Shown here: positions 2,363 to 32,720 of the stretch, piece after piece | Layout: every line of letters starts with the position of its first letter | Numbering within the stretch: the stretch's first letter is position 1 | NCBI GenBank assembly: GCA_029056055.1 | Contig: JAIDCC010000093.1 | Location: 1 to 34,808, forward strand | Source: Duncaniella sp. | GTDB lineage: Bacteria; Bacteroidota; Bacteroidia; Bacteroidales; Muribaculaceae | Length of the DNA: 34,808 bases | Direction of reading: 5' to 3' | Notes under the pieces: model-generated | Seen by the model: the letters and a program-made list of their open reading frames with translations, nothing else | Told to the model about the DNA's origin: nothing | Databases searched by the model: none | Made by a program: the position numbers and the translations under genes

Positions 2363-2460
2363 CTGTCCCACCGTCCCACGACACGCCACATACGCCTCCA
2401 TGCACGGACGGTGCCTCCGGCACGTTTCTCCTGCACGGCCACATAATCATTTATCCTACA
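2363..2460 (-). repeat. Dispersed repeat, modules B and C, inverted copy
   Basis: Read on the minus strand, this copy has module C (GATAAATGATTA, then CCGTGC, then the hairpin GTGCCGGAGGCAC and CGTCCGTGCATGG) followed by the right arm of module B (GGCGTGTCGTGGGACGGTGGG). The same order is seen on the plus strand at about 9000-9125 and 21596-21775. It begins just after the cinA stop. Confidence 0.75.
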
Positions 2461-2510
2461 GACGATACACACGTCAATAGTCGTAAATGTTTTTTAGGCA
2501 TAGAAACGCC

Positions 2511-2580
2511 GTCCCAAGTGTCCCAAGCGCAGGCGTCCCGTGGGACAATGGGACAGCGTGGGACAACATAATTCAGGCAT
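2511..2580 (+). repeat. GTCCC/GGGAC dispersed repeat (module B)
   Basis: The left arm has GTCCCAAGTGTCCCAAGC, the centre is CAGGCGTCCCGTGGGAC, and the right arm is GGGACAATGGGACAGCGTGG. It continues into ACATAATTCAGGCAT, the sequence that also follows module B at 8665-8685 and 8862-8877. Confidence 0.85.
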
Positions 2581-2590
2581 TAGCGGGTAG

Positions 2591-2610
2591 GGACGTGCCA
2601 TGGCACGTCC
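2591..2610. repeat. Perfect 20-bp palindrome GGACGTGCCATGGCACGTCC
   Basis: The sequence equals its own reverse complement over all 20 bases and is centred on an NcoI-like CCATGG core. It lies 11 bp after the B repeat. Confidence 0.95.
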
Positions 2611-2660
2611 GCGGAGACCCACGAGGGCGAATTGACCGCGGCGCTGTGCATCTTTGCTGC

Positions 2661-2680
2661 AGACGCGCCATGGCGCGTCT
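2661..2680. repeat. Perfect 20-bp palindrome AGACGCGCCATGGCGCGTCT
   Basis: A second perfect 20-bp palindrome with the same GCCATGGC core but different outer arms, 50 bp from the first. The shared core with covarying arms suggests a common origin. Confidence 0.95.
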
Positions 2681-2767
2681 CTACCTGCAAATCAGACGAT
2701 TAGCGGGAAGATACCTGTACTATCTCGGGGTGAAGGAGTGTCGTAGGACAGCTGCCGGGGCAATATT

Positions 2768-2854
2768 CATCCCCTTCAGGGATGTTCTTGAGTGATAGAA
2801 CGTTTCCCCACGAATGAATTCGTGGGGCTTTGAAATTCATCCCCTCTGGGGATG
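2768..2854. repeat. Cluster of three REP-like hairpins
   Basis: Three strong inverted repeats follow each other: CATCCC/GGGATG (2768-2773 with 2779-2784), CCCCACGAA-TGAA-TTCGTGGGG (2806-2827), and CATCCCC-TCT-GGGGATG (2838-2854). The first and third share the lead-in ATTCATCCCC. The layout, paired short hairpins in a gene-free stretch, resembles REP/BIME elements; that assignment is inference. Confidence 0.75.
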
Positions 2855-2859
2855 GGTGT

Positions 2860-2905
2860 CCCAGATGTCCCAAGGGACGCAATCGGGTGGGACAGCAGTG
2901 AATGG
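2860..2905 (+). repeat. Partial GTCCC/GGGAC repeat (module B)
   Basis: Two left-arm units (GTCCCAGAT, GTCCCAAGG) run into GGGACGC, and TGGGACAGC follows after a short spacer. It is a short or decayed copy. Confidence 0.6.
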
Positions 2906-2935
2906 GTTAATGAATGTTAATTAGGTTTATAACTA

Positions 2936-2966
2936 TTGTATTTAAAATGTATTTTGTATAACTTTG
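2936..2966 (+). promoter_or_regulatory. Bacteroidetes promoter for the BspA-like gene
   Basis: The -33 box TTG (2936-2938) and the -7 box TAACTTTG (2959-2966) are separated by exactly 20 bases, matching the Bacteroidetes housekeeping consensus. Transcription should begin near 2972, leaving a leader of about 95 nt before the start at 3067. Confidence 0.75.
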
Positions 2967-3066
2967 CAAACGGATGGTTTGCCGGGTAGATTGATTTCGT
3001 CATCTTACGCTTAGCATACTCAGACGCACGGAGATTTTTCATTTTAACCAGTAATTATAATTTACT

Positions 3067-5109
3067 ATGGGCAGAATTTTCATTTTCCTTTTGGCCTGCG
3101 CTGTCACTCTCGTGACGCGAGGCGCCGTCGGCGACACGTTTGAAGCCGATGTGTTTGTTTTCACAGTGACGTCTGAAAATCCTAAAGAGGTGTCGGTGGC
3201 TTCGAATAGAGATCAACCTGATGCAATCAATATTCCAGAGACGGTGACAAATGGCGGGAACACGTACACGGTCACGTCGATTGCTCCCAAAGCTTTCCGC
3301 TACCTTAATAAGTTTCGTTCGTTGTCGATGCCTTCGACTGTGACTGAGATAGGCGACAATGCTTTCGAGGGTTGCGACGGTTTAACACAGATAATATTCA
3401 GCCGGAATCTTCGCAAAATCGGAAATAATGCCTTTGCTTATTGTATCGGTTTTTCGGGTTTCACCATTCCCGTGGTAGAGGAATTCGGCACCTATGTGTT
3501 TTCGGATTGCAGTCAGTTGCAGTCGGTCACTCTTCCGAGCAACATGACTTCGATACCTGAGGGTATGTTTAATAATTGCACGAAGCTTTCAAATATTACA
3601 CTCCCGGAGGGGTTGAAGACGATTGGAAAATCAGCGTTTACCGCTTGTGAAAGTCTTAGCGATATCAAATTGCCGGATGGACTCGAAGCGATTGGAGAGC
3701 AGGCTTTCGGTAGTTGCACATCCATCAGCGATGTTGTTATACCGGCTTCTCTTTCGCGGATTGATAAAGAGGCTTTCGCTTGGTGTCGTTCGCTGAAGCA
3801 GTTTGAAGTGGCTTCGGGCAACCGTTATTTTTCAGCAAATGACGGTGTGCTTTACGATTACGATAAGCTGAACATTATTTTCGTGCCTTATGTGAAGCGT
3901 TCGGTCAACATTCCGTCGAGTGTGACGGTTATCACGGCAGGAGCTTTTGCGGGTCACACTATGTTAGAGAAAGTGACCATGGGCGATGCAGTGACTGCTA
4001 TCGGAGAGAAGGCATTCTGGAATTGTGAAAAGCTGTCAGAAATCCGTTTGCCGGAAACGGTGACCTCCATCGGAAAATCAGCTTTTGCTTCTTGCTCTAA
4101 GCTGACCGAAATAAAATTTCCCGTCGGGTTGAAAGAATTGGGTGAAAGTGCGTTTAACTCCTGTGGCCTGACTACTCTCACCCTACCTCCACTGATAAAG
4201 GTAATACCGGAACGGTGCTTTGATGATACCAAATTAACGGAAGTTGCCCTTCCCTACGGAGTGACAAAGATTGAGAAGCAAGCCTTTCTATATTGCCGTA
4301 ATTTGACAACAATAGTCCTCCCCACGACTGTCACCTCAATCGGAGAGGGCGCGTTTGGATATTGCGAAGCGCTCACGGAGATGGTGGTTCCCGAAGGGGT
4401 GACCGAGTTGGGCAACGGTGTTTTCAATGGGTGCAATGCACTGAGTCGTATCTCACTCCCGGCAAGCTTAAGCACACTTCCGCCGGAGACATTTAAGGGT
4501 TGCTCAAAGTTGGAGGCTCTCTACGACCATCGTGACAAGCCGCAGCAACTTAAGCAGAATGTGTTTGATGGGGTGTCGTCAGACTTGACCATCTATGTGC
4601 CTCGCGGAGCGAAAAGTGCCTATGACGCTTCTGAACTCTGGAATATGTATTTCTCGAAATTTCTCCAGATGGGCGGGGCTGATTTGACGCTAAGCCAAAA
4701 CACCCTCTCGCTGATGGAGGGAAAGAGGACCACTCTGAAGGCCACCGTGACTAAGGATGCCGATGTAGTGATTAGAAATCAGGCGTGGAAGAGTTCGGAC
4801 ACGGATGTGGCGATTATAGACGCAGGCGGTGAACTCTATGCTTACGGGGCCGGAAGCGCAGTGGTGTGGTATTCGTGCAAGGACGACTACGGATGCCCGC
4901 ACGTGGCTGTGTGTACGGTGACCGTCACGCCCGACCCGTCGGGAATTGACGAGATTGTAATTGATGAGGGGGCTGAAGATGTCGATGCTCCGGCTGAATA
5001 TTTCAACCTCCATGGTGTGCGTGTCAATGCCGAATCACTCACCCCGGGCATCTATATCGTGCGCAAGGGCGGGAAAGTGAGGAAGGTTGCCATTAATGGG
5101 GGATTTTGA
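3067..5109 (+). CDS. BspA-like leucine-rich-repeat surface protein
   Basis: This is a 680-residue exported protein. Residues 1-22 form a signal peptide (a hydrophobic stretch ending near AVG). Residues about 55-500 hold many LRR_5 (BspA-type) repeats of about 23 residues with the pattern LP..VT.IG..AF..C..L. A typical BspA linker (IYVPRGAKSAYDAS) follows, then an Ig-like/Big_2-type domain (about 540-625), and the C-terminus has YFNLHGVRV...GIYIVRKGGKVRKVAI, resembling sorting tails of type IX-secreted proteins. The family is surface-exposed and often involved in adhesion, but no ligand can be inferred here. The gene is clearly less GC-rich than its neighbours and sits alone between two repeat islands, which suggests acquisition or a distinct history. 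It has its own promoter (2936-2966). Confidence 0.88.
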   Translation: MGRIFIFLLACAVTLVTRGAVGDTFEADVFVFTVTSENPKEVSVASNRDQPDAINIPETVTNGGNTYTVTSIAPKAFRYLNKFRSLSMPSTVTEIGDNAFEGCDGLTQIIFSRNLRKIGNNAFAYCIGFSGFTIPVVEEFGTYVFSDCSQLQSVTLPSNMTSIPEGMFNNCTKLSNITLPEGLKTIGKSAFTACESLSDIKLPDGLEAIGEQAFGSCTSISDVVIPASLSRIDKEAFAWCRSLKQFEVASGNRYFSANDGVLYDYDKLNIIFVPYVKRSVNIPSSVTVITAGAFAGHTMLEKVTMGDAVTAIGEKAFWNCEKLSEIRLPETVTSIGKSAFASCSKLTEIKFPVGLKELGESAFNSCGLTTLTLPPLIKVIPERCFDDTKLTEVALPYGVTKIEKQAFLYCRNLTTIVLPTTVTSIGEGAFGYCEALTEMVVPEGVTELGNGVFNGCNALSRISLPASLSTLPPETFKGCSKLEALYDHRDKPQQLKQNVFDGVSSDLTIYVPRGAKSAYDASELWNMYFSKFLQMGGADLTLSQNTLSLMEGKRTTLKATVTKDADVVIRNQAWKSSDTDVAIIDAGGELYAYGAGSAVVWYSCKDDYGCPHVAVCTVTVTPDPSGIDEIVIDEGAEDVDAPAEYFNLHGVRVNAESLTPGIYIVRKGGKVRKVAINGGF

Positions 5110-5116
5110 GTAGGAC

Positions 5117-5365
5117 GCTGTCCCATATGCCCCACGCCGATGGCGTGTCGTGGGACAGTGGGACAGCGTGTGACAACCAAATTCAGGAATAAGCGGATGT
5201 GTCGCAGGGGCGAAAGATTACGTCGCCATGTACGGACATGCCTTTGGCATGTAGGAGGTGCGCAGCGTCTCTTATGATGAAAATTTCCGCGATTACATAT
5301 TCGCTTATCTTCTGTATGATAAATGATTCCCCTGCGCGGCGGAAGGGTGTCGTGGGACGGCGGGG
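5117..5365 (+). repeat. Dispersed repeat, modules B and C
   Basis: Module B (about 5117-5180) has CTGTCCCATATGCCCCACG, then GGCGTGTCGTGGGACAGTGG and GGGACAGCGTGTGACAACC. Module C (about 5181-5340) follows, with ATTCAGGAATAAGCGG, the hairpin ACATGCC-TTT-GGCATGT near 5236-5252, and TATGATAAATGATTCCCC. A last half-arm (GTGTCGTGGGACGG) runs up to the stop codon of the exonuclease gene at 5366. The element fills the gap between the convergent BspA-like and exonuclease genes. Confidence 0.8.
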
Positions 5366-5869
5366 TCAATTGGTGAGGGCGAGGCAGATTTGCGCGCAGC
5401 CCATGGCGTCGGGGAGGGCCTGGTGGTGGTCGGAAAATTCGATGCCGAGGTAGCTGCACACTACGGGGAGTGAATAGGAGCCGATGGCGGGTTTGCGTAT
5501 GGCGCGGCGTGCCATGAGGTAGGTGCAGTAGAAGGGATATTCGGGATAGTCCATGCGGTAGACGCGGTGGCAGGCACGGATGCATCCTTCGTCGAAAGCT
5601 TTGTTGTGGGCCACGAGAGGGAGTCCTTCAAGCCAGGGATGGAGGTCGCGCCAGACGGCGTCGAAAGTGCGGGCGTTTTCGGTGTCGCGCATCGAGATGC
5701 CGTGGATGGTCTCGGTGAAGCGTCGCACATAGTATTCAGGTTCGGGCTTGACGAGTTCGTAGAAAGTGTCAACCACCTGACCGTCTCTGACCTTGACGGC
5801 ACCGATGCTGCATATGGAGGTGCGCTCGTAGTTGGCTGTTTCGACGTCAATAGCTACAAAATCTTTCAT
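5366..5869 (-). CDS. DnaQ-like 3'-5' exonuclease
   Basis: A stand-alone DEDDh exonuclease of 167 residues, related to the epsilon subunit of DNA polymerase III. Exo I is AIDVET (D8 and E10 as metal ligands), Exo II includes VAHNKAFDEG (D93), and Exo III-epsilon is H149 with D154 in HHQALPDA (the Hx4D pattern). It therefore has all catalytic residues. The protein is little more than the nuclease domain, which fits small Bacteroidetes proteins annotated as exonucleases; a role in repair, proofreading or RNA trimming cannot be told apart from sequence. It starts 31 bp downstream of ispH on the same strand and is probably the last gene of the porQ-cmk-ispH operon. A dispersed repeat abuts its stop. 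Confidence 0.9.
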   Translation of the reverse strand: MKDFVAIDVETANYERTSICSIGAVKVRDGQVVDTFYELVKPEPEYYVRRFTETIHGISMRDTENARTFDAVWRDLHPWLEGLPLVAHNKAFDEGCIRACHRVYRMDYPEYPFYCTYLMARRAIRKPAIGSYSLPVVCSYLGIEFSDHHQALPDAMGCAQICLALTN

Positions 5870-5900
5870 AAGTATAATGTAAAATGGGAGAGGCTGAATT

Positions 5901-8476: not shown

Positions 8477-8586
8477 AAGAGTGTTGTGGGAGGGACGCCG
8501 ACCCGCGGGGTCGTTTCCTCTCTATAGAACAACGTCGTTTCGGCCACATTATTGCCCCGAGAGAGATATATAATGGGGAATGTTGC

Positions 8587-8611
8587 GAATGGGGAATGGG
8601 GAATGGGGAAT
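8587..8611. repeat. Heptamer tandem repeat (GAATGGG x3.6)
   Basis: GAATGGG is repeated three full times plus GAAT, with another related unit at 8572-8582. It lies about 110 bp upstream of the porQ start and matches the CCATTCC array at 1-21 in the opposite orientation. Copy number may vary between strains by slippage. Confidence 0.85.
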
Positions 8612-8620
8612 GTTGGAGGA

Positions 8621-8832
8621 TGTCACAGCTGTCCCACGCCGAGGGCGTGTCGTGGGACGGTGGGACAACATAATTCAGGAATAAGGCCACGAAATAACGC
8701 GAATTTTTATGCGACCATGTACGGTCATGCCTTTGGCATGTTGGTGGTGCCCAGCGTATCCATGGCGAAAAGTCCCAATGATTATCTATGCGCATATCGC
8801 TTGTATGATAATTGATTATCTCGCTGTGCGGG
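8621..8832 (+). repeat. Dispersed repeat, modules B and C (tandem unit 1)
   Basis: Module B has GTCCCACGCCGAGGGCGTG, TCGTGGGACGGTGGGACAAC, then module C: ATAATTCAGGAATAAGG, CCATGTACGGTCATGCC-TTT-GGCATG, an inverted pair ATTATC/GATAAT around TATGCGCATA, and ATTGATTATCTCGCTGTGCG. Unit 2 repeats this 195 bp later. Confidence 0.88.
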
Positions 8833-9060
8833 GGACAGCGGGACAGGGGACAGCGTGGGATAACATAATTCAGGCATAAGGTCACGAAAAACCCGAATGT
8901 TTATGCGACCATGTACGGACATGCCTTTGGCATGTTGGTGGTGCGCAGCGTCTCCGTGGCGAAAAAACAATGATTATCTATGCGCATATCGCTTGTATGA
9001 TAATTGATTATCTCGCCGTGCGGGGGAAACGTGCCGAAGGCTCGTCCGTACATGGCGGCC
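8833..9060 (+). repeat. Dispersed repeat, modules B and C (tandem unit 2)
   Basis: GACAGCGGGACAGGGGACAG and GCGTGGGATAACATAATTC lead into a module C nearly identical to unit 1. Differences include a perfect hairpin arm (GGACATGCC rather than GGTCATGCC) and small indels near 8895 and 8965. It ends GCCGTGCGGGGGAAACGTGC and CGAAGGCTCGTCCGTACATG. Confidence 0.88.
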
Positions 9061-9080
9061 GAGGCATACATGGCGGCCGG

Positions 9081-9124
9081 GGCGTGGGACAGCGTGGGAC
9101 GGTGGGACAATGGGGCAGCGGGAC
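9081..9124 (+). repeat. GGGAC right-arm array (module B)
   Basis: Four GGGAC units and one GGGGC variant at 8-10 nt spacing, with no matching left arm nearby. It abuts the T-run of the tRNA-His terminator on the other strand. Confidence 0.75.
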
Positions 9125-9157
9125 AAAAAAAGAGTCTGCCGATGTGACAGACTCTTT
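9124..9157 (-). terminator. Rho-independent terminator after tRNA-His
   Basis: On the minus strand a perfect 10-bp stem (AAAGAGTCTG / CAGACTCTTT) with a 9-nt loop is followed by a run of seven T residues. It starts 4 bp after the tRNA 3' end. Confidence 0.92.
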
Positions 9158-9160
9158 GAG

Positions 9161-9235
<75 letters not shown>

Positions 9236-9255
9236 ATTTGTTTGGTTTTGCGGTG

Positions 9256-9286
9256 CAAAGTTACGGCTTTTTTTTATTCCCACCAA
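9256..9286 (-). promoter_or_regulatory. Promoter of tRNA-His
   Basis: On the minus strand TTG (9286-9284) and TAACTTTG (9263-9256) are separated by exactly 20 bases. The tRNA 5' end lies 20 bases further on. Confidence 0.85.
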
Positions 9287-9367
9287 ATTTTCGGGCAACT
9301 TTTTTCGAAAAAAATGTTCAGTGGGGATGTTTGAGGGGTTTGCGAAGGATGGTTTAGGAGGGAAAAC

Positions 9368-9398
9368 TTGCTAAATTGCGCGAAATTGTCTAAATTTG
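9368..9398 (+). promoter_or_regulatory. Promoter of lepA, close to the start codon
   Basis: TTG (9368-9370) and TAAATTTG (9391-9398) are separated by exactly 20 bases. Only CAGCC separates the -7 box from the ATG at 9404, so the transcript should be leaderless or nearly so. Confidence 0.8.
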
Positions 9399-9403
9399 CA
9401 GCC

Positions 9404-12239: not shown

Positions 12240-12322
12240 AAGTGTCACGGCTGTCACGGCTCTGTCCCACGCCGGGGGCGTGTCGTGGGACACCGGGACA
12301 GCGGGACACTTGGGACATTCGG
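12240..12322 (+). repeat. GTCCC/GGGAC dispersed repeat (module B)
   Basis: CTGTCCCACGCCGGGGGCGT leads to GTCGTGGGACACCGGGACAG, then GCGGGACACTTGGGACATTC. The right arm has four GGGAC units 8-9 nt apart. The last unit supplies the TTG of the pgeF promoter. Confidence 0.88.
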
Positions 12323-12340: not shown

Positions 12341-12347
12341 CATTAGT

Positions 12348-13460: not shown

Positions 13461-14849
13461 ATGCAGACCGAATACGCTAAGAAGTGGGAGGAATGTCTGA
13501 AGATAATTCGTGACATTATCCCCGCTGAACAATTCAAATATTGGTTTGAGCCGTTGTCTTTCCTCTCGATGAAAGACAACGTGCTGACCATATCCTGTCC
13601 GTCGGAGTTTTTCTCCGAGCAGCTTGAAGAGCGCTATTTCAAAGTCCTCGGTCCATCGCTCAAGCGCGTCTTCGGCAACGGCATACATCTTATATATGAG
13701 TTTCCCATCGTAGCGGGCGACCCCACGACGCATGTCAACGTAGACAGCGCGCATCCGTCGCAGGTGGTCAAGCCGGCTCCCGGCGCGTCGTCCAACCCCT
13801 TCCGCGAGAAGTTTGTCGAGGAAATCGAGTCGCAGCTCAACCCGGTCTACACTTTCGAAAACTACGTCATTTCGGAGTCTAACAAGGTGGCTCGCTCCAT
13901 CGGTGAGGCCATAGCCAACGACCCCAAACTGCAGACGTTCAACCCTCTGTTTGTGTTTGGTTCGTGCGGTGTGGGCAAGACCCACCTCATTCAGGCCATC
14001 GGTATCCGCATAAAGGAACGCGACCCTCGCGCACGAGTGCTCTACATCACGGCGCGACTCTTCGAGAGCCAGTACACCGCCGCCGTGCAGCGCAGCAAGG
14101 TCAACGAGTTCATATCCTTCTACCAGAGTATCGACACGCTCATCATCGACGACATTCAGGACTTCATCGGCAAGGATAAGACCCAGCGCACCTTCTTTCA
14201 CATCTTCAACCACCTCAAGCAGAACTCGAAACAGCTCATCATGTCGAGCGACTGCTGCCCTTCTGAAATGGAGGGTATGGAAGAACGCCTCCTCTCACGC
14301 TTCAAAAGCGGTATGACCGCCCGCCTCGACAAGCCCGACTATCAGCTGCGCCGCGAGGTGCTCGAGCGCAAGGCCCGTCGCGACGGTCTGGTGCTCCCTC
14401 CCGACGTGATGGACTATCTGGCCACTAACGTCACCGAGTCAATCCGCGAACTCGAGGGAGTGATGGTGTCGCTCTTAGCTCACGCCACATTCCTCAACAA
14501 GGAAATCACCGTCGACCTGGCCCGCCGAGTGCTTGCCAACGCCGTCAAACTCAACCGCCGCACGCTCAACTTCGAGACCATCACCAAGACCGTGGCAACC
14601 TATTACGGACTCGATGCCGACCAGATTTTCACCAAGACCCGCAAGCGCGAGGTGTCAGACGCGCGTCAGATGGTGATGTATCTGGCCAAGAAGCACACCA
14701 AGATGCCCCTCAAGGCCATCGGCGCACGCCTGCAACGCACGCACGCCACCGTGCTCTACGCCTGCCGTCTCATCGACGAGCGCCTTCCCCTCGAAAAGAA
14801 GCTTCAGGAGGAAGTGGCCGAGATAGAAAAGACGCTGATGACCGACTGA
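13461..14849 (+). CDS. dnaA: Chromosomal replication initiator DnaA
   Basis: DnaA binds DnaA boxes at the origin, oligomerises with ATP and opens DNA. The 462-residue protein has domain I (about 1-80), a short linker, the AAA+ domain with Walker A GSCGVGKTH (167-175) and Walker B LIIDDIQD (about 226-233), and domain IV at the C-terminus. Domain IV reads RKREVSDARQMVMYLAKKHT and later QRTHATVLYAC. In E. coli the corresponding recognition loop is GGRDHTTV, whose D433, H434 and T435 contact the DnaA box; here the equivalents are T427, H428 and A429. The start is the ATG after the promoter at 13391-13421, giving MQTEYAKKWEECLKII as in other Bacteroidales. Confidence 0.97.
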   Translation: MQTEYAKKWEECLKIIRDIIPAEQFKYWFEPLSFLSMKDNVLTISCPSEFFSEQLEERYFKVLGPSLKRVFGNGIHLIYEFPIVAGDPTTHVNVDSAHPSQVVKPAPGASSNPFREKFVEEIESQLNPVYTFENYVISESNKVARSIGEAIANDPKLQTFNPLFVFGSCGVGKTHLIQAIGIRIKERDPRARVLYITARLFESQYTAAVQRSKVNEFISFYQSIDTLIIDDIQDFIGKDKTQRTFFHIFNHLKQNSKQLIMSSDCCPSEMEGMEERLLSRFKSGMTARLDKPDYQLRREVLERKARRDGLVLPPDVMDYLATNVTESIRELEGVMVSLLAHATFLNKEITVDLARRVLANAVKLNRRTLNFETITKTVATYYGLDADQIFTKTRKREVSDARQMVMYLAKKHTKMPLKAIGARLQRTHATVLYACRLIDERLPLEKKLQEEVAEIEKTLMTD

Positions 14850-15092: not shown

Positions 15093-15165
15093 AGGTGTCC
15101 CAAGTGTCACTGATGTCCCAAGCCAGAGGCGTGTCGTGGGACAGTGGGACAGCGGGACAGAGAGC
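15093..15165 (+). repeat. GTCCC/GGGAC dispersed repeat (module B)
   Basis: GTGTCCCAAGTGTCACTGAT and GTCCCAAGCCAGAGGCGTG form the left arm and centre; TCGTGGGACAGTGGGACAGC then GGGACAGAG form the right arm. Confidence 0.87.
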
Positions 15166-19654: not shown

Positions 19655-20494
19655 ATGAAATTCACACCTGAACGTATCTCTACTCTCCAACCCGACGAAA
19701 TCTTCGTATTCGGGAGCAATCTGAAAGGTATGCACGGCGGAGGAGCTGCCCGTTTGGCCCACGCTCGCTTCGGCGCCGTGTGGGGTCAAGGCACAGGCCT
19801 GCAGGGACAGTCGTATGCCATTCCCACCATGCACGGAGGCGTCGAGGCCATCCGCCCCTACGTCGACGAGTTTACGGCCTTTGCCCGCGAGTGCGACCAA
19901 AACACCTTTCTCGTCACCCGCATCGGGTGTGGGATTGCCGGGTTTAAGCCTGCCGAGATGGCGCCATTGTTTGCCGACGCATTCCCCCTCTACAATGTGC
20001 GCCTTCCCCGCGATTTTGTCGAGGTGATTTGCAGCCCGCAGTTCACGGCGTCCACGGCCTCCGACCCTCTGTCGAGCTACACCATAGCCGACGTCGTTGC
20101 CGACTACTGCGCCATCGTTCTGCGCTTCCGTCCCTACCTCGCCGAAAACCCCGAACTGCTCAAGGAGTATGTGACCGAACACGCCGCGACTGCCCCGCCT
20201 GCCATATTCACGCCCGTCAAAGAAATGTTTGCCGCCCTCGACGAAGCCACGCCGGAGGGACTTACGCGATTTGCCACGGAAGCATCCGCGAAACTCTCGC
20301 ATTCATATCCCTATTATACTCCCTACCTGCGTTACACTCTGCTGCACGGTCTCGAAGAGGGACGCCGACTCCTCGGTACAGGACGCACATTCACAGCCGA
20401 CACTCTCCGCGAAGCCATCCTTGGTCATCTTTCCTCGCCCGAATTTGTTGAAACCACCACTCACGCCCTTTCCGCCCTCTGCACCTCAATGTAG
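19655..20494 (+). CDS. Unknown protein with N-terminal FGSN/GGGAA domain and C-terminal extension
   Basis: A 279-residue cytoplasmic protein. Residues 12-115 resemble a small phage- and genome-encoded domain with signature FVFGSNLKGMHGGGAARLA, YAIPTMHGGV and VTRIGCGIAGF. The glycine-rich pattern and the order of these motifs recall macro-domain-like proteins (ADP-ribose binding or hydrolysis), but I cannot confirm that fold by eye. Residues about 126-279 form a separate, helix-rich part with no motif I know (for example DYCAIVLRFRPYLAENPELL). It starts 14 bp after the pgi terminator's T-run and has no clear promoter of its own, so it may depend on read-through. It converges with the acyltransferase gene; a repeat hairpin fills the 55-bp gap between them. 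Confidence 0.75.
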   Translation: MKFTPERISTLQPDEIFVFGSNLKGMHGGGAARLAHARFGAVWGQGTGLQGQSYAIPTMHGGVEAIRPYVDEFTAFARECDQNTFLVTRIGCGIAGFKPAEMAPLFADAFPLYNVRLPRDFVEVICSPQFTASTASDPLSSYTIADVVADYCAIVLRFRPYLAENPELLKEYVTEHAATAPPAIFTPVKEMFAALDEATPEGLTRFATEASAKLSHSYPYYTPYLRYTLLHGLEEGRRLLGTGRTFTADTLREAILGHLSSPEFVETTTHALSALCTSM

Positions 20495-20542
20495 CTGTCC
20501 CAACTGTCCCACGTGGGCGTTTCCCGTGGGACAATGGGACAG
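20495..20542. repeat. Compact GTCCC/GGGAC hairpin (module B)
   Basis: The cleanest copy: CTGTCCCA (20495-20502) pairs with TGGGACAG (20535-20542), and GTCCCACG (20506-20513) pairs with CGTGGGAC (20525-20532). A small 3x2 internal loop separates the stems, and the apical loop is 11 nt. It starts immediately after one stop codon and ends 7 bp before the stop of the convergent gene. It could stop transcription from both sides, although no T-run is present. Confidence 0.9.
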
Positions 20543-20549
20543 ATGAGGT

Positions 20550-21590: not shown

Positions 21591-21775
21591 CGATAAATGA
21601 TTGCGCGACTATGTCGGAACGTGTGTATCACCTGTGGGATAAATGATTACGTCTCCGTGCATGAGTTACGTGCCGAAGGTGCGTCCGTACATGGCGGCGG
21701 TGGTACGTCGCATGTCGCGGTGTCCCAATGTCCCGGACGTAAGTGTTCTATGGGACAATGGGACAGCGGGACGCC
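21591..21775 (+). repeat. Dispersed repeat, modules C and B
   Basis: Module C (about 21591-21718) includes GATAAATGATTACGTCTCC, GTGCATGAGTTACGTGCCG, and CGTCCGTACATGGCGGCGG. Module B (21719-21775) has GTGTCCCAATGTCCCGG, a centre GACGTAAGTGTTC, and TATGGGACAATGGGACAGCG. It ends 6 bp from the hslR-like stop codon. Confidence 0.82.
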
Positions 21776-23693: not shown

Positions 23694-23702
23694 ATTCGAC
23701 TG

Positions 23703-23733: not shown

Positions 23734-23762
23734 AGATTTAACAATTATTAATTTTGAATGTC

Positions 23763-23808: not shown

Positions 23809-23816
23809 AACGAGCG

Positions 23817-23925
23817 CGTCCCGATTGTCCCGGTTGTCCCAAGTGTCCCGTTGTCCCACATGTCCCAAGCTACGCCTCCGGCTTGGGACAGCTGTGACAC
23901 CCGGACACTTCCGACACTTTCAAAG
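23817..23925 (+). repeat. Extended GTCCC/GGGAC dispersed repeat (module B)
   Basis: This copy has the longest left arm: six GTCCC units, 8-9 nt apart, from 23818 to about 23866. The apical stem is GTCCCAAGC / GCTTGGGAC around TACGCCTCCG. The right arm is shorter and decayed (GGGACAGCTGTGACACCCGG). Confidence 0.88.
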
Positions 23926-23941
23926 AAATCACGAGCGAAAT

Positions 23942-23972
23942 TTGGCGGTTTGGAATATTGTTCATAACTTTG
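23942..23972 (+). promoter_or_regulatory. Promoter of the B12 uptake operon
   Basis: TTG (23942-23944), exactly 20 bases, then TAACTTTG (23965-23972). Transcription should start just before the riboswitch. Confidence 0.85.
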
Positions 23973-23984
23973 CGGACGGAATGA

Positions 23985-24212
23985 CAGTGTCGGCTTGCGA
24001 GCCGATGAAAAGGGAACGGGGTGAGACTCCCCGACAGACCCGCTGCTGTGATTCTCCGCGAGATGGCCTCGGAAGTCATCTTACGTCGAAGCTACAGGCC
24101 CACTCAACTTGAGGCCACGCCACTGCCCTGACGGGCGGGAAGGCGGCGACGACGGACGAGCCCCCCACAGAAAGGCTCGGGAGATAAGTCAGAAGACCTG
24201 CTGAACGTTCCG
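23985..24212 (+). ncRNA. Cobalamin (adenosylcobalamin) riboswitch
   Basis: Conserved segments of the cobalamin riboswitch appear in order: GATGAAAAGGGAAC (about 24004), GGTGAGACTCC, ACAGACCCGCTGCTGTGA (about 24034-24052), GCCACTGCCC, CGGGAAGGCGGCG, and the B12 box AGTCAGAAGACCTGC near 24187-24202. It sits 12 nt after the promoter and about 215 bp before btuB. In this class B12 binding represses downstream genes. The expression platform is not certain: a hairpin CGGCG/CGCCG at 24235-24252 and CCCCA/TGGGG at about 24321-24337 are candidates, and no clean intrinsic terminator is seen. Confidence 0.94.
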
Positions 24213-24425
24213 CTCTATACATATTTAAATACTACGGCGAAAAACAACGCCGGCAAATGCGGTTTTGACGTTTTCGGGTAATAAGACATCAAGACGCACA
24301 CAATAAAAAGGCTATGCCGTCCCCATAGATTTTGGGGAGCGTTCAGGCCGAAGATGCGTGTCTCCCCCGAAGACTGATGAGCCGACCAAACTCACCAATC
24401 TCTTCAACGAGGCCCGCAATTTTTT

Positions 24426-27535: not shown

Positions 27536-28737
27536 CGAAGAAATTACTTTCTTTCCTGCCGATAGTGCTCCTGCTCCTCTGCCTCGGTTGCGGAGGGCAG
27601 GGCCGTCAGCGGCAATCCAAAGCTCCCGAGGGTGAAAACCTCATGACCCGGGCGAAGTTGCTGCATCTGTCGGAACGCGGCGACGGCACCTTTGACGTGG
27701 AAATTGCAAGCCCGTGGGACTCGACACGCCCACTACAGCGTCTGCGCCTCGTGCCTGAAGGCGTGAATGTCGAACCTGTCGAAGGGGTCACGACTCTACA
27801 GATACCCCTGCGACGCTCGCTGGTCTATTCGGGCGTACACACCGCCCTGATAACCGAACTCGGGGCCGACTCGGCCATCGGAGGCATATGCGACCGCGCC
27901 TATATCACCCAACCCACTCTGCAGCAACGTCTTGCCGAGGGAACGCTGACCGACTGCGGAAATTCGTCAGCCCCAACCACCGAGCGCATCATGGCACTCA
28001 GTCCCGACGCGATACTTCTCTCCCCCTACGAAAACGCCACCGACCACTCCACGCTGGCCCGACTCGGAACCGTGGTGGTAGAGTGTGCCGACTACATGGA
28101 ACCGACCCCTCTCGGACGCGCCGAATGGATGCGCTTCTACGGGCTGCTCTACGGACGCCGAGCCGAGGCCGACTCGCTTTGGGAAGCCACGAGGGAGGCC
28201 TATGACCGACTTTCGACAATAGCGCGCGGAAGCTCCGAGCGGCCGCGGGTGCTCCTCGACCGTCTCTATCAAGGCGTGTGGTATCTGCCGGGGCGTGCGT
28301 CGCTCTGGGATGTCTACCTCACGGATGCCGGAGCCGAAAACCCGGTGGCCCGGTTGGGCGATGCCGCGGTGCTCAATCTCTCGGCCGAACAGGTCATAGC
28401 CAATGCCGCAGACGCTGACTTCTGGCTCATACGCTACTATCAGAACACTCCCCTCACGCGCGAACAACTCGCCGCCGAGCATCCCGCCTACAGCCGCATC
28501 AAGGCCTTCGGCGACGGGAAAGTCTACGGAGTCAACACCTCCGTCACCCCCATCTACGAAGAGACCCCGTTCCATCCACAGCTTCTTCTGGCCGAACTCG
28601 TCGGTCTGTTTCATCCGTCCCAAGTGTCCCGAGTTTCCCATGCAGTAGCGCCTCGTGAGACAATGGAACAGCGGGACAGCACCGACGCCCCGACACTGCC
28701 TGACAATCAATCGAGATATTTCTCAATTCTCAAGTAA
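27532..28737 (+). CDS. btuF: B12 ABC transporter substrate-binding lipoprotein BtuF, with repeat insertion
   Basis: A 401-residue lipoprotein (C20 in LCLGCGG) with a periplasmic-binding-protein fold of the FecB/BtuF class. It has the first lobe with ITELGADSAIGGICDRAY, an EWMRFYGLLYG linker helix, and the second lobe with AADADFWLIRYYQN and KAFGDGKVYGVN. It captures B12 released by BtuB for the inner-membrane permease. The C-terminus is odd. In related proteins I expect a short end like FHPELFP...RYF..L. Here F360-H361-P362 is followed by 21 residues (363-383) encoded by a degraded GTCCC/GGGAC repeat (28617-28680), then a linker and SRYFSILK. The repeat appears to have been inserted in frame and kept. 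The gene overlaps btuG by 4 bp. Confidence 0.88.
   Translation: MTKKLLSFLPIVLLLLCLGCGGQGRQRQSKAPEGENLMTRAKLLHLSERGDGTFDVEIASPWDSTRPLQRLRLVPEGVNVEPVEGVTTLQIPLRRSLVYSGVHTALITELGADSAIGGICDRAYITQPTLQQRLAEGTLTDCGNSSAPTTERIMALSPDAILLSPYENATDHSTLARLGTVVVECADYMEPTPLGRAEWMRFYGLLYGRRAEADSLWEATREAYDRLSTIARGSSERPRVLLDRLYQGVWYLPGRASLWDVYLTDAGAENPVARLGDAAVLNLSAEQVIANAADADFWLIRYYQNTPLTREQLAAEHPAYSRIKAFGDGKVYGVNTSVTPIYEETPFHPQLLLAELVGLFHPSQVSRVSHAVAPRETMEQRDSTDAPTLPDNQSRYFSILK
28617..28680 (+). repeat. GTCCC/GGGAC repeat inside btuF
   Basis: GTCCCAAGTGTCCCGAGTTT and CCCATG form the left arm, CAGTAGCGCCTCG the centre, and TGAGACAATGGAACAGCGGG then ACAGC the right arm. Several GTCCC/GGGAC units carry one substitution, but the order and spacing match the intergenic copies. 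Confidence 0.8.
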
Positions 28738-28816
28738 GTGAGAAAAATAAATGAATAAATAAAACGAAGCATCCAAAAAGAACGAGTTTTATTGTTCAGG
28801 AATTTTTCTTTACAAA

Positions 28817-28843
28817 TATCGTTTTATTTTTGGAACTTACTTA
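28817..28843 (+). promoter_or_regulatory. btuC leader with -7 box, shared with the acyltransferase gene
   Basis: A -7 box TATTTTTG lies at 28825-28832, 13 nt before the ATG; no TTG is found 20 bases upstream. The segment TATCGTTTT...GAACTTACTTA is nearly the same as the leader of the acyltransferase gene on the minus strand (21595-21573). Confidence 0.55.
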
Positions 28844-28845
28844 AA

Positions 28846-29838
28846 ATGAAATTCATTCTCCTCTCCATCATCACCCTGCTCCTTGCATTGGGTTGCCTCT
28901 TCGTCGGCTCAGTGAGTCTCGCCCCCTCCGACGTGTTTTCCGCACTCCTCGCCGGCGACGACGGAAGCACGACGGCCTTCATCGTGTGGCAACACCGTCT
29001 GCCCATGGTCATCACAGCCATTCTCGCCGGGTCGGCCTTAGCCGTGAGCGGATTGTTGCTTCAGACAGCTTTCCGCAATCCGTTGGCCGGTCCCTCGGTG
29101 CTCGGCATCAATTCGGGCGCCTCGCTCGGAGTGGCCATCGTCATGCTCGGTCTCGGGGGGAGTCTTTCGGTAGGCACGCTCGCCATTGGCGGTCAGGGCG
29201 CCGTCATAGCCGGAGCTTTTCTCGGGTCGATGCTCGTCATGGGGATATTGTTGCTGCTTTCGGCCATACTCCGCAACCCCCTGATGCTTCTGATTTGCGG
29301 CATCATGGTGGGCTATCTCACCTCGTCGGCCATCACGCTTCTCAACTTCGCCGCCGATGCCACAGGCTCGCGCAGCTATCTGCTGTGGGGCATGAGCAGT
29401 TTCTCGGGCATCCCGCTCACGTCGCTCCCCCTCTTCGCCCTTCTCACCCTCCTCGGGCTCGGCTGCACGGTGTTTCTGGTCAAGCCCCTCAACCTTCTCG
29501 GTCTGGGCGACAACTACGCCGAAAATCTCGGTGTCTCCATCCGTCGCGTGCGTCTGCTGCTCCTCTTCGCCACCGGTCTGCTCACCGCCGTGGCCACCGC
29601 CTATTGCGGCCCCGTCTCGTTCATCGGGCTTTCCGTGCCCCACATAGCACGCATATTCTTCCCCACCGACAACCACCGCATCCTTCTGCCCGCCACACTT
29701 CTGGCCGGGGCGGCCGTCTCGCTCGGATGCTGCCTGATGTGTGTCATGGGCGGCTCGCAAGTGCTTCCGCTCAACGCCGTCACCCCGCTGGTCGGCGCGC
29801 CGGTGGTCATCTACATTCTTTTGAAAAAATCAGCGTAG
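28846..29838 (+). CDS. btuC: FecCD-type ABC transporter permease (BtuC)
   Basis: A 330-residue inner-membrane permease of the FecCD/BtuC family with about ten membrane helices. Signatures include RLPMVITAILAGSALAVSGL, LLQTAFRNPLAGPSVLGI, the GSRSYLLWGMSSF segment, and AYCGPVSFIGLSVPHIAR, the coupling helix region that contacts the ATPase. I chose ATG 28846 (MKFILLSIITL) because the frame's upstream codons overlap the -7 box. Position after btuF implies B12 import, though siderophore import cannot be excluded from sequence alone. It is separated from btuF by 108 bp and a promoter-like element, so it may escape the riboswitch. Its 3' end overlaps the ATPase gene by 32 bp, tail to tail. Confidence 0.9.
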   Translation: MKFILLSIITLLLALGCLFVGSVSLAPSDVFSALLAGDDGSTTAFIVWQHRLPMVITAILAGSALAVSGLLLQTAFRNPLAGPSVLGINSGASLGVAIVMLGLGGSLSVGTLAIGGQGAVIAGAFLGSMLVMGILLLLSAILRNPLMLLICGIMVGYLTSSAITLLNFAADATGSRSYLLWGMSSFSGIPLTSLPLFALLTLLGLGCTVFLVKPLNLLGLGDNYAENLGVSIRRVRLLLLFATGLLTAVATAYCGPVSFIGLSVPHIARIFFPTDNHRILLPATLLAGAAVSLGCCLMCVMGGSQVLPLNAVTPLVGAPVVIYILLKKSA

Positions 29839-30595
29839 GGTCAAACTCCGTCCCGGCAAGCTGCGGGAAGTAGCGTCGAAATTCTCCTGCCGCGGCGAGT
29901 GCGGAGGGTGTGCCCGCCGTCAGTCCGTGCTTGCGGTCGAGCAGCCAAGCCGTGTCGGCTATGCGCAGCGCAATTTCCAGGTCGTGGGTCGAGAGAAAGA
30001 CGGTTTTCCCCTCCTCGCGTGCCAATCGGCGCAGCAGAGTGAGGATTTCCACCTTGCCGGGATAGTCGAGAAACGCCGTCGGTTCGTCGAGGAATATCAC
30101 CGGGGTTTCCTGAGCGATTACTTTGGCTATCATGGCCTTCTGACGTTCGCCGTCGCTGAGGGTGGGCAGCCGTCGCGAGCGCAGATGCTCTATCCCCACG
30201 AGACGGATTGCGTCGTCGACCTTGTCGACATCAGCCGACCCAGGTGCACCGAAAAAGCCTGTGTGCGGACTGCGCCCGAGTGCCACGAGTTCCTCCACCG
30301 TGGTGTTGGCCATCTGGGGGCGGTCGGTGAGCACCACTCCGAGCTGCGAAGCCTTGGTGCGTCGCGACATGACGCTGATGCTCACGCCGTTCACTTTCAC
30401 TTCGCCCGACACTGCATCCTGAAAACCGGAGAGCGTGCGGAGCAGAGTCGACTTGCCCGCACCATTGGGGCCGATGAGACAGGTGAGCTGCCCCGGCATA
30501 AGCGTGCCGTTGAGTCCGCTCGAAATGATTTCGGGGGTTTTCCTCACGCTGCCGTAGCCGGTGGTGAGGTCGTTGATGACTATTGTGGGGTTCAT
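29807..30595 (-). CDS. btuD: ABC transporter ATP-binding protein (BtuD/FecE type)
   Basis: A 262-residue ABC ATPase. Walker A is GPNGAGKST (42-50), the signature is LSDGERQ (146-152), Walker B is VIFLDEPTAFLD (166-177), and the H-loop histidine is H204 in STHD. It is the natural partner of the neighbouring FecCD permease. Unusually it lies on the opposite strand and converges with btuC, overlapping it by 32 bp. Its promoter (30600-30630) is a perfect TTG-N20-TATTTTTG with only 4 nt before the ATG, and no cobalamin riboswitch fits in the 86-bp gap upstream. So it is probably expressed independently of B12, or serves more than one transporter. Confidence 0.88.
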   Translation of the reverse strand: MNPTIVINDLTTGYGSVRKTPEIISSGLNGTLMPGQLTCLIGPNGAGKSTLLRTLSGFQDAVSGEVKVNGVSISVMSRRTKASQLGVVLTDRPQMANTTVEELVALGRSPHTGFFGAPGSADVDKVDDAIRLVGIEHLRSRRLPTLSDGERQKAMIAKVIAQETPVIFLDEPTAFLDYPGKVEILTLLRRLAREEGKTVFLSTHDLEIALRIADTAWLLDRKHGLTAGTPSALAAAGEFRRYFPQLAGTEFDPTLIFSKECR

Positions 30596-30599
30596 GCCA

Positions 30600-30630
30600 C
30601 AAAAATACTAATTTTCGGCGAGGTATGCAA
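30600..30630 (-). promoter_or_regulatory. Promoter of the ABC ATPase gene
   Basis: On the minus strand TTG (30630-30628), exactly 20 bases, then TATTTTTG (30607-30600). Four bases (TGGC) then lead to the ATG at 30595, so the message should be leaderless or nearly so. Confidence 0.85.
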
Positions 30631-30681
30631 TAAAACCGACGGCGAAACGTTTTAAGATTGACAATTATCTCACGATTTTCT

Positions 30682-32634
30682 ATGAAAAAAATTCTCTTAA
30701 CGGTAGCCGCAGGCGCAGCCATCATTGCCGCCGGTGCCAAAGGCAGCGATGCTTCCGACCCCGTGCTCATGACCGTCGACGGCCGCCCGGTCTATCAGAG
30801 CGAATTTGAATACCTTTTTAATAAGAACAACGGTCAGCAGACCGAAGGGCAAGACCCCCAGAGCTATCTCGACCTCTTCACCGTCTATCGCCTGAAGGTG
30901 GCCGACGCCGAGGCCGCTCGTCTCGACACCACCGAAAACTTCCGCAAGGAGTTCGGAGCCTACCGCACCGACCTCTCTAAGCCCTACATGCGCGACACCA
31001 CCGTGACCGACCGTCTCGTGCGCGAGGCCTACGACCGCATGGGTTCGCAGCGCCGCGTCAGCCACATCATGCTCCCCGTGAGTGCCGACCCCGTGGAAAA
31101 CCTTTCCTATCGCCTGCGTCTCGACTCGATTCGCAACGAGATAGTCAACAACGGCGCTGATTTTCAGCAGATGGCCGTGAAGTATTCCTCCGACCAGTCG
31201 GTGAAGCGCAACCGCGGTGAGCTCGGATTTGTCAATCCCAACACCTTCCCGTTCCGTTTCGAGGAAGCTGTGTGGGCCACTCCCGTCGGAGAGATTTCCG
31301 AAGTGGTCGACGACACCCCCTACGGCTACCACATCATCCGCGTCGAAGAGGAGCGCCCCAACCCGGGCAGCGTCAAGGTGCGCCACATCCTCAAGATGAC
31401 CCGCGGCATGACGCCCGAACGTCAGCTCGCCAAGAAAGCCGAAATTGATTCAATCTACGACCTCCTCATGGCCGGCGGCGACTTCGCCACGCTTGCCGCT
31501 CAGAACAGCGACGACACCGGTTCGGCTGCACAGGGTGGCCTTCTCGGCATCATTGCCCCCGGCGAGACTGTCGGGCCGTTTGAATACGTGGCCTTCGGCC
31601 TGGCCGACAGCGCCATCTCGAAGCCCGTCAAGAGCGAGTTTGGCTATCACATCATCCAGCCCCTCGGCCATTATCCCCGCAAGTCGCTCGAAGAGAGCCG
31701 TTCATCCATCATGCGCAGCATTGCCCGCGACGAGCGTGCCTCCTATCCCGAAAAGGAATTCATTGCCGGCGTGAAGCGCGACCGCGGCATTTTCCTCTCG
31801 CCCGCTGCCCTCAAGAAAGTGAGCGAAGTGGCCGACGCCGCCTCATCTTCCGCCGAGGCGTTTGACGCTCTCGCCTCCGAGCAGCTCACGGCAGCCACTC
31901 TCCCGGACGCTACCGTCTCCGTAGCCGACGTTGTGGCTTCGATTCCCGCAGAAGTGCGTCAGGGCACTCCCTCCGTCTACCACACCTTTGACGCTGCCGC
32001 GCAGACAGCCATCGACGACGCCACCCGCGAGTATGTGCTCCGCTCGCTCATGACCGACAACTCGGCCTACCGCAACCTCGTCAACGAGTATCGCGACGGC
32101 ATCCTCCTCTTCGACATCTCAAACCGCCGCGTGTGGGATAAGGCAAATCAAGACCCCTCGGCACTCGAAGCGTTCTATCAGGCCAACCGCGAGAAATATG
32201 CCTCGTCGTGGGACCGTCCCCGTTTCAAGGGTTTCGTGGTCTTCGCCTACAACGATTCGCTCGCCAACGAAGCGCACACCTTCCTTGCCGCCAACAAGGT
32301 GAATCCCGACTCGCTCAACAACATCCTCCGCGAGAAATTCGGACGCCATGTCAAGGCCGAGCGTGTGCTCACCGCCAAGGGCGACAACCCCATTGTCGAC
32401 GAAATTGCTTTCGGTGGCCCCAAGGCTGAGCCGGTTGGAAAGTGGGTGGTTTGGTTCCCCTACAATTCAGCCGTCATCGACCAACCCGCCGAGTTGGCTG
32501 ACGTCCGCGCCGCCGTGCTCGCCGACTTCCAACAGCAGCTCGAGGATGAATGGGTCAGCGAACTGCGCCGCAAATATCCGGTGAAGTACAACAAGAAAAA
32601 TCTCGCACGCCTCGGCATCAAAGTCAAGAAATAA
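30682..32634 (+). CDS. Periplasmic peptidyl-prolyl isomerase with two PpiC rotamase domains
   Basis: A 650-residue exported SurA/PpiD-like foldase. I chose ATG 30682 (MKKILLTVAAGAAIIAAG) because it starts a clean signal peptide; the frame's first ATG at 30658 adds eight unlikely residues. An N-terminal SurA_N-like region (about 25-120) is followed by two parvulin domains. The first runs from RRVSHIMLPVS to GYHIIRVEEE and the second from VKVRHILKMTRG to GYHIIQPLGH. Both keep the FGYHII/YGYHII strand of active rotamases. The remaining ~270 residues contain a chaperone-like region and a basic C-terminus. Likely job: folding of outer-membrane and surface proteins in the periplasm. Confidence 0.92.
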   Translation: MKKILLTVAAGAAIIAAGAKGSDASDPVLMTVDGRPVYQSEFEYLFNKNNGQQTEGQDPQSYLDLFTVYRLKVADAEAARLDTTENFRKEFGAYRTDLSKPYMRDTTVTDRLVREAYDRMGSQRRVSHIMLPVSADPVENLSYRLRLDSIRNEIVNNGADFQQMAVKYSSDQSVKRNRGELGFVNPNTFPFRFEEAVWATPVGEISEVVDDTPYGYHIIRVEEERPNPGSVKVRHILKMTRGMTPERQLAKKAEIDSIYDLLMAGGDFATLAAQNSDDTGSAAQGGLLGIIAPGETVGPFEYVAFGLADSAISKPVKSEFGYHIIQPLGHYPRKSLEESRSSIMRSIARDERASYPEKEFIAGVKRDRGIFLSPAALKKVSEVADAASSSAEAFDALASEQLTAATLPDATVSVADVVASIPAEVRQGTPSVYHTFDAAAQTAIDDATREYVLRSLMTDNSAYRNLVNEYRDGILLFDISNRRVWDKANQDPSALEAFYQANREKYASSWDRPRFKGFVVFAYNDSLANEAHTFLAANKVNPDSLNNILREKFGRHVKAERVLTAKGDNPIVDEIAFGGPKAEPVGKWVVWFPYNSAVIDQPAELADVRAAVLADFQQQLEDEWVSELRRKYPVKYNKKNLARLGIKVKK

Positions 32635-32635
32635 T

Positions 32636-32720
32636 CGCGTCCCGCGCTGTCCCAAGTGTTCCACTGCCCCACGTCCCACGAGCCGCTTTCGCTTGGGACA
32701 TACGTGACATTTGGGACACC
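32636..32720 (+). repeat. GTCCC/GGGAC dispersed repeat (module B)
   Basis: The left arm has GTCCCGCGCTGTCCCAAGTG, TTCCACTGCCCC and GTCCCACG; the apical part is AGCCGCTTTCGCT; the right arm is TGGGACATACGTGACATTTG then GGACACC. It starts 2 bp after the PPIase stop. Confidence 0.83.

What the first reader, a model, noticed from the sequence alone, without database searches (positions are those of the whole stretch)
2363..32720. A dispersed GTCCC/GGGAC inverted-repeat family with 9-nt arm periodicity
At least fourteen copies lie in 35 kb (near 2363, 2511, 2860, 5117, 8621, 8833, 9081, 12240, 15093, 20495, 21719, 23817, 28617, 32636). The left arm is a short array of GTCCC units 8-9 nt apart; the right arm is an array of GGGAC units at the same spacing; between them is a variable stem-loop. 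Arm length differs from copy to copy (one to six units on the left), so the arms can pair in several registers. Central hairpins differ while keeping complementarity (GTCCCAAGC/GCTTGGGAC at 23860-23890; GTCCCACG/CGTGGGAC at 20506-20532). No transposase, spacer regularity or coding sign is present. I do not recognise a described family.
Basis: seen in the sequence. Interest (0 to 1): 0.75.

Follow-up and report, generated by a model that had tools for sequence, protein, structure and literature searches.

The report
Regionally clustered TGTCCCA palindromic array repeats
One bacterium carries about forty copies of a small mirror-image DNA repeat, crowded into a few stretches of its genome and built from a short word that mobile elements often carry beside their replication genes; how it spread and what it does is not yet known.

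Summary
Convergent arrays of TGTCCCA, units 8-9 nt apart, flank an asymmetric centre (AGCCGANGGCGTNNCG). The whole-genome model search puts every match at E<=1e-3 on 8 of 129 contigs; 37 of 40 strong sites lie on contigs that make up about 5% of the genome (not shown to be adjacent). Three of the 14 window copies are half elements. The model found none in 26 congeners. A sister family, convergent TGTCAANN, is clustered on other contigs; CTCTGATNN arrays are scattered. Arms keep the word without compensatory changes, so a DNA-binding site fits better than an RNA fold. Copies crowd gene 3' ends. No RAYT gene was found. Elsewhere the same convergent array recurs beside mobile-element helicase-primase genes: 23 of 80 genome loci have it within -133..+99 nt of an AAA_25-HTH stop codon, and 28 of 46 viral loci have it just outside a helicase-primase gene (controls 6 of 69). 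I read the family as a RAYT-less, REP-like repeat whose body is an iteron-type, origin-like array. Spread mechanism and function are inferred.

The parts
2361..2388 (-). half element (one arm), 4 nt after the cinA-like stop codon
2508..2567 (+). full convergent TGTCCCA array with centre
2855..2903 (-). full element, GATTGCG centre subtype
5117..5175 (+). full element, 8 nt after a stop codon; DNA fold z -4.5
8619..8677 (+). full element, preceded by a 7-nt AATGGGG array (8572-8612)
8829..8866 (+). half element, right arm only
9083..9127 (+). half element, right arm only
12254..12318 (+). full element upstream of a pgeF-like gene; absent from the corresponding gap of the nearest species
13461..14849 (+). 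dnaA (landmark; no DnaA-box cluster in the window)
15094..15160 (+). full element between dnaA and lysS
20494..20548 (+). full element that fills the gap between two convergent stop codons; DNA fold z -6.0
21719..21775 (+). full element
23817..23905 (-). full element with a six-unit arm, just before the cobalamin riboswitch
28617..28680 (+). degenerate element inside the 3' end of the Peripla_BP_2 open frame
32638..32719 (-). full element; its core begins 19 nt after a stop codon and overlaps the next open frame

Best explanation
A species-specific, non-autonomous interspersed repeat whose body is an iteron-type array: two convergent runs of the protein-readable word TGTCCCA around a fixed centre. 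Shown: architecture; regional clustering; none found in 26 congeners; excess at gene 3' ends; conservation of the word without compensation; recurrence of the same kind of array beside mobile-element helicase-primase genes. Inferred: the arrays are double-stranded DNA sites of the kind read by the DNA-binding domain of a replication-initiator helicase; the chromosomal copies descend from, or imitate, such origin-like arrays; units were gained and lost by slippage and whole elements were copied mostly within one part of the chromosome without a transposase of the RAYT kind. They are tolerated where they harm least, just behind stop codons, where if transcribed they could form 3'-end hairpins on either strand. 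No dedicated host function is required by the data.
For: 40 distinct sites on 8 contigs; random placement gives 32.7, minimum 24 in 20,000. Centre-first test, arms not required: in the territory 20 of 129 centre matches have both arms intact and 0 just one; elsewhere in the fetched sequence 0 of 598 have both, 6 have one. No arm covariation. 12 of 41 intergenic elements within 40 nt of a stop codon against 3.0 expected, 0 of 2000 placements (4 of 45 dropped as overlapping frames). Exact TGTCCCANNTGTCCC: 16 here, at most 1 in each of 26 congeners. Elsewhere: 23 of 80 genome loci with the array -133..+99 nt from an AAA_25-HTH stop codon; 44 of 80 genome loci with a helicase-primase homologue, 38 of them within 600 nt, against 0 of 112 8-kb congener windows; in 28 of the 29 viral loci with a homologue the array is outside the gene within 750 nt, 5.0 expected; 28 of 46 TGTCCCA viral loci against 6 of 69 control-pattern loci, Fisher 2e-9, or 4e-7 without the 7 viral loci that supplied queries. 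SaPI and SCCmec precedent for iterons behind the helicase gene (PMC7581432, passages).
Against: The proposed reader is not found here: whole-genome searches for DUF6371 and for one AAA_25-HTH protein were empty, and 13 helicase-primase queries were empty in the fetched 0.83 Mb; VapE, D5, DUF927 and AAA_25 in general were not searched in the rest of the genome. Copies on one contig are not more alike than copies on different contigs (p 0.15), which does not support short-range copying. Block-wise orientation (7 changes of 32, p 0.001) is unexplained. The link to mobile-element origins rests on shared word, spacing and convergence, not on a shared centre. A composition-matched word gives 41 viral hits, so raw counts prove nothing; all 6 control-pattern loci with a homologue also had the array just outside the gene, so placement is not specific to this word. 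In loci with a homologue a random position is within 600 nt in 49%. Several viral loci are near copies of one another; the 750-nt limit was set.
Confidence: 0.43

Rival explanations
1. Macrodomain or nucleoid-address sites: a dedicated DNA-binding protein reads TGTCCCA arrays and organises this part of the chromosome, as MatP does at matS.
For: 37 of 40 sites on about 5% of the genome, arms intact or absent, block-wise orientation, and a sister family with another word clustered on other contigs.
Against: Not found in 26 congeners, where an essential organiser would be expected; contigs could not be ordered relative to each other, ori or ter.
Confidence: 0.2
2. Bidirectional 3'-end elements: hairpins behind stop codons that end transcription or protect mRNA 3' ends.
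For: 12 of 41 within 40 nt of a stop codon; strong palindromes; 20494-20548 fills a gap between convergent genes.
Against: None of 11 full window elements has more than 5 T in the 10 nt behind it on either strand (5 at 12264 + and 32639 -). The terminator scan allows loops of 3-8 only and so could not see these stems; it places one minus-strand hit whose T tail touches the half element at 9083-9127. No arm covariation; the outer arm is broken in 14 of 33 at one pair. Does not explain clustering or block orientation.
Confidence: 0.18
3. A MITE- or REP-like element moved in trans by a transposase with local target preference.
For: Common centre in most copies; shared longer flanks in some (ATAATTCAGG..TAAG on the right, AGTCGCTTGG on the left).
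Against: No Y1_Tnp match in the genome (other transposase families not searched); no GTAG/CGTC-tagged stem; copies not closer in sequence to contig neighbours.
Confidence: 0.13

Closest known systems
SaPI/SCCmec-type iteron origins of self-loading helicase elements
   Same: Arrays of short repeated words next to a mobile-element helicase gene; TGTCCCA arrays in plasmid- and phage-type loci sit there (PMC7581432 passages).
   Different: In this chromosome about 40 arrays stand alone, with no helicase gene found in the searches made; the word is TGTCCCA and the arms are convergent. The SCCmec Cch2 iteron is AAGTG in direct repeats, and its inverted repeats were dispensable for binding.
REP/BIME elements with RAYT
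   Same: Short intergenic palindromes in tens of copies, often behind genes.
   Different: No RAYT match; no GTAG or CGTC tag outside the stem (here TGTC is part of the stem); variable-length arrays; clustered, whereas a 2025 survey saw no clear clustering of REPs in the genome it maps (PMC12306157, PMC3733652: passages).
matS/MatP
   Same: Tens of sites confined to one chromosome region (matS: 23 in 800 kb, start of abstract of PMC3330122 in the listing).
   Different: Longer multi-unit arrays with a hairpin centre; not found in the genus; no reader known; contiguity not shown.

Membership tests
REP/RAYT | REP-associated Y1 transposase in the genome | tested here: not met
   0 matches in G000; the search rang in 5 of 14 control genomes
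REP/RAYT | stem tagged by unpaired GTAG or CGTC | tested here: not met
   TGTC is inside the paired arm; definition from PMC3733652 passages
REP/RAYT | many intergenic palindromic copies | tested here: met
Iteron origin of a helicase-primase element | array of short repeated words at near-constant spacing | tested here: met
Iteron origin of a helicase-primase element | initiator helicase gene adjacent | tested here: not met
   (fetched 0.83 Mb, which holds the window and most elements); for two proteins genome-wide; met for the same array elsewhere
Iteron origin of a helicase-primase element | initiator binds the word | not testable with these tools
   needs a binding assay
Macrodomain site (matS-like) | confined to one region | tested here: inconclusive
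   strong contig clustering but adjacency of the contigs not shown
Macrodomain site (matS-like) | kept in related species | tested here: not met
Structured RNA | compensatory changes in the arms | tested here: not met
   no Rfam match at the elements
Intrinsic terminator | hairpin followed by a T tract | tested here: not met
   at most 5 T in the 10 nt behind 11 full window elements, both strands; limited to short loops
MITE | terminal inverted repeats with target-site duplication | not tested
   no near strain with clean empty sites; one corresponding gap lacks the element but is diverged

The most novel reading that the evidence does not exclude
The arrays are ectopic initiator sites. A mobile element's helicase-primase fires at them, local unscheduled replication and template switching plant new copies in nearby gaps, and parts of the chromosome become territories with their own word (TGTCCCA in one, TGTCAA in another). 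The arrays would then be self-spreading origins without a gene, or decoys that titrate the initiator of incoming elements.
Probability: 0.1. Interest if true: 0.88.

Novelty: new variant of a known kind. Interest (0 to 1): 0.56.

Why it matters
Bacterial interspersed repeats are usually treated as genome-wide (recalled). Here two families of the same convergent style, with different words, are each clustered and sit on largely different contigs of one genome, and the first was found in 1 of 27 species of the genus. That lets one ask directly how such repeats spread and whether spread depends on chromosomal distance. Separately, the convergent TGTCCCA array appears to be a recurring mark beside mobile-element helicase-primase genes of several families (AAA_25, VapE, DUF5906/D5, DUF927), a handle for finding their origins.

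Tried and rejected
Origin-proximal centromere (parS-like): suggested by dnaA in the window; not supported. The window has 1 near DnaA box against 4.2 expected, no cluster of three near boxes was found in the fetched stretches of this genome, GC skew follows gene strand (my reading; that script stopped at a masked contig after printing most), and gene order is scrambled in the genus, so contigs could not be ordered.

Three territories: I first thought that CTCTGATNN arrays were a third confined family. Counted as 21 arrays they lie on 19 contigs, just what chance gives (18.9), and 2 of 21 on the GTCCC/TGTCAA contigs against 4.3 expected is not significant (p 0.17). Dropped; the novel reading and overall interest were lowered a little for that.

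RNA element: no covariation, no Rfam match at the elements. Nearest-neighbour copying: not supported at contig scale (p 0.15). Raw pattern-hit counts: dropped as evidence. First alignment with G022 used the wrong strand and was replaced. Tandem-repeat counts do not separate this genome from congeners well, because long-period coding repeats are included; the word-run count does better.

Papers: nine searches (one search listed none) were seen as listings; no listed title or abstract start names this family. Passages were read in PMC12306157, PMC3733652 and PMC7581432 only. Most subscription papers are not in that library.

Limits: model searches scored 150 of 1059 first-look candidates in this genome, at most 150 per genome in the genus and 13 per genome in the family search (3 weak hits in 396 other genomes), so weak copies can be missed; several congeners are incomplete. 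The pattern was made from this genome's arrays. Helicase-primase queries came partly from the loci tested. Proteins were chosen by me; of those 30, one search's ten were all replication-type, but L070 had no family and L081, L088, L095, L102, L103, L122 and L128 showed other or no families.
Full report
Observation. The window (34,808 nt, 57.5% G+C) holds 12 clusters of at least three GTCCC/GGGAC words; 300 dinucleotide shuffles give 0.57 on average and at most 4. Eleven of the fourteen reported places are full convergent arrays (28617 is degenerate) and three (2363, 8833, 9081) have one arm only. The full copies are one family: [TGTCCCA NN]n, then a centre whose majority form is AGCCGANGGCGTNNCG, then [TGGGACA NN]m, in either orientation. 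Subtypes exist, such as a GATTGCG centre.

Genome. A sequence-only model from 25 copies finds 50 matches at E<=1e-3 in this 2.88-Mb genome, including opposite-strand and part matches, all on eight of 129 contigs (150 of about 1000 candidates were scored). Strong matches (E<=1e-6 over the fetched contigs) reduce to 40 distinct sites: C81 11, C123 (the window) 10, C125 8, C113 5, C19 3, C17, C58 and C66 one each. Random placement gives 32.7 contigs and never fewer than 24 in 20,000 trials; lengths of 49 contigs were known, the other 80 were given their mean. On C125 no match at E<=1 lies before 54.7 kb. Counting C81, C113, C123, C19 and the last 26 kb of C125, the territory is about 148 kb, 5% of the genome; that these contigs adjoin is not shown. 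An independent pattern with one mismatch gives 31 hits on seven contigs, one on C68 where the model finds none.

Centre-first test. To avoid choosing copies by their arms I searched the fetched 0.83 Mb for the centre alone. In the territory 20 of 129 centre matches carry both arms with at most one mismatch and none carries just one; elsewhere 0 of 598 carry both and 6 carry one. The single model sites on C17, C58 and C66 have deviant centres and are not among these. Within this test the elements are whole or absent.

Other arrays. Exact TGTCAANNTGTCAA occurs 83 times on ten contigs, which I merge to 33 arrays; chance gives 27.9 contigs, minimum 19. Only 1 of the 33 is on the five core GTCCC contigs, against 37 of 40 GTCCC sites (Fisher 4e-16). 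C17 and C58 carry both kinds, with one strong GTCCC site each. Of 23 TGTCA arrays in the fetched sequence 21 are convergent, 0 divergent, 2 one-sided, so this is a sister family with another word. CTCTGATNNCTCTGAT (76 hits with up to one mismatch; 21 arrays) is scattered over 19 contigs as chance would have it. Runs of four or more identical 5-mers at 6-11-nt steps number 93 in 837 kb here, or 24 in 438 kb in stretches not taken for arrays, against 20 in 1,190 kb of six congeners.

Relatives. The model gives 0 matches in 26 congeners. Exact TGTCCCANNTGTCCC is found 16 times here and once in each of five congeners; the same pattern read backwards occurs once in each of two. Of the five, G008 and G020 are single 9-nt arrays; G002, G003 and G012 share another context that looks like a common gene, not tested further. 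The gap before the pgeF-like gene has the element here and lacks it in G022, whose DnaA is 91% identical; that gap is diverged, so it is not a clean empty site.

Position and structure. Of 45 listed elements 4 overlap frames and were dropped; of the other 41, 12 lie within 40 nt of a stop codon (3.0 expected, 0 of 2000 placements) and 1 within 40 nt of a start (3.5 expected, p 0.13). Frames are ATG frames of at least 200 residues, so some boundaries are rough. Single strands fold well, but pairs do not co-vary: the inner arms have no double change, the outer arms none and 14 of 33 breaks at one pair, the small hairpin three cells. None of 11 full window elements has a T tract of six or more in the 10 nt behind it. 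Neighbours tend to share orientation (7 changes of 32, p 0.001), but copies on one contig are not more alike than others (p 0.15). The first asks for polarity over tens of kilobases; the second speaks against simple short-range copying. Neither is explained.

The word elsewhere. GTCCCANNTGTCCCAN{10,24}GGGACA was scanned over the species-genome collection (at least 118 stretches; 80 analysed) and viral contigs (46 loci). In 28 of the 80 genome loci I found an AAA_25-HTH or DUF6371-primase homologue. I took the 23 in which the AAA_25-HTH match lies within about 30 nt of the array: in all 23 the array starts between -133 and +99 nt of that gene's stop codon, at 40-100% identity to my queries, and in 20 of the 23 a primase match lies within 94 nt. 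At least nine of the 23 are near copies of one element; others are diverse. That element is on eight plasmid records of Bacteroides, Phocaeicola and Butyricimonas. Ten large neighbours that I chose from other loci all had replication-type domains: AAA_25 with PriCT_2 or Prim-Pol, VapE/Toprim_3, DUF5906/D5_N, DUF927, DnaB-N. With 13 such queries 44 of 80 genome loci hold a homologue, 38 of them within 600 nt of the array, against 0 of 112 8-kb windows from congeners. In those loci a random position would be within 600 nt in 49%. In viral loci 29 of 46 hold one, and in 28 the array is outside the gene but within 750 nt (5.0 expected). Control patterns: reversed 2 of 5, TGTCAAA 1 of 23, TGCTCCA 3 of 41. 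The contrast with 28 of 46 holds without the seven viral query loci (21 of 39, Fisher 4e-7), though some loci are near copies. All six control loci with a homologue also had the array just outside the gene, so convergent arrays beside such genes may use many words, with TGTCCCA a common one. Note that the TGTCAAA pattern shows no such association (1 of 23), so the sister family gains no support from it. Thirty-six of the 80 genome loci and 17 of the 46 viral loci had no homologue, and some lie beside ordinary chromosomal genes (L088, L095, L122).

Interpretation. Published work on SaPI and SCCmec elements places iteron origins directly behind the helicase gene and has the helicase C-terminal domain bind them (PMC7581432, passages). 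The arrays above fit that plan. The window family has the array but no helicase found: DUF6371 and one AAA_25-HTH protein had no match in the genome (one search warns that an empty answer without a positive control shows little, though the family of that protein matched many loci), nor had 13 queries in the fetched 0.83 Mb. I therefore call it an origin-like array that has become a chromosomal interspersed repeat. That a mobile-element initiator drove the spread is a guess; that the word is kept as DNA and not as a fold is supported; the excess behind genes is shown; present function is open.

Noticed in passing
loci L063-L142 and L269-L314: Convergent TGTCCCA arrays recur beside mobile-element helicase-primase genes of several families (AAA_25, VapE, DUF5906/D5, DUF927).
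   Followed up: partly
own genome contigs C15, C17, C18, C58, C59, C62, C68, C76, C79, C81: Convergent TGTCAANN arrays, some followed by TTCTCA arrays, clustered on contigs largely different from the core GTCCC ones.
   Followed up: partly
own genome, 19 contigs including C4, C5, C7, C45, C70: CTCTGATNN 9-nt arrays, scattered as by chance; function unknown.
   Followed up: partly
window 28732-28845; C125 8148, 28283, 58263; C19 13251, 24222: A MITE-like repeat of about 110-190 nt, AAGTAAGTGAGAAAAATAAATG...AACTTACTT.
   Followed up: no
window 2391-2474, 5204-5328, 8693-9064, 21626-21703: A second repeat module with GTGCCGAAGGCACG-like hairpins and a TGTATGATAATTGATTA part that often neighbours the GTCCC elements.
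   Followed up: no
window 2590-2850; C66 100-500; C113 3719-4211: REP-like palindromes such as GGACGCGCCATGGCGCGTCC, CATCCCCTCTGGGGATG and CCCCACGAATGAATTCGTGGGG.
   Followed up: no
window 23968-24220: Cobalamin riboswitch upstream of a TonB receptor and Peripla_BP_2 cluster, just behind the six-unit element.
   Followed up: no
congeners G001, G016, G018, G013: Gene order is scrambled within the genus: four markers of one 35-kb contig lie up to 1.4 Mb apart in G001.
   Followed up: partly
C81 and C94 contig ends: A 58-nt end overlap suggests that these contigs are neighbours, or ends in a shared repeat.
   Followed up: no
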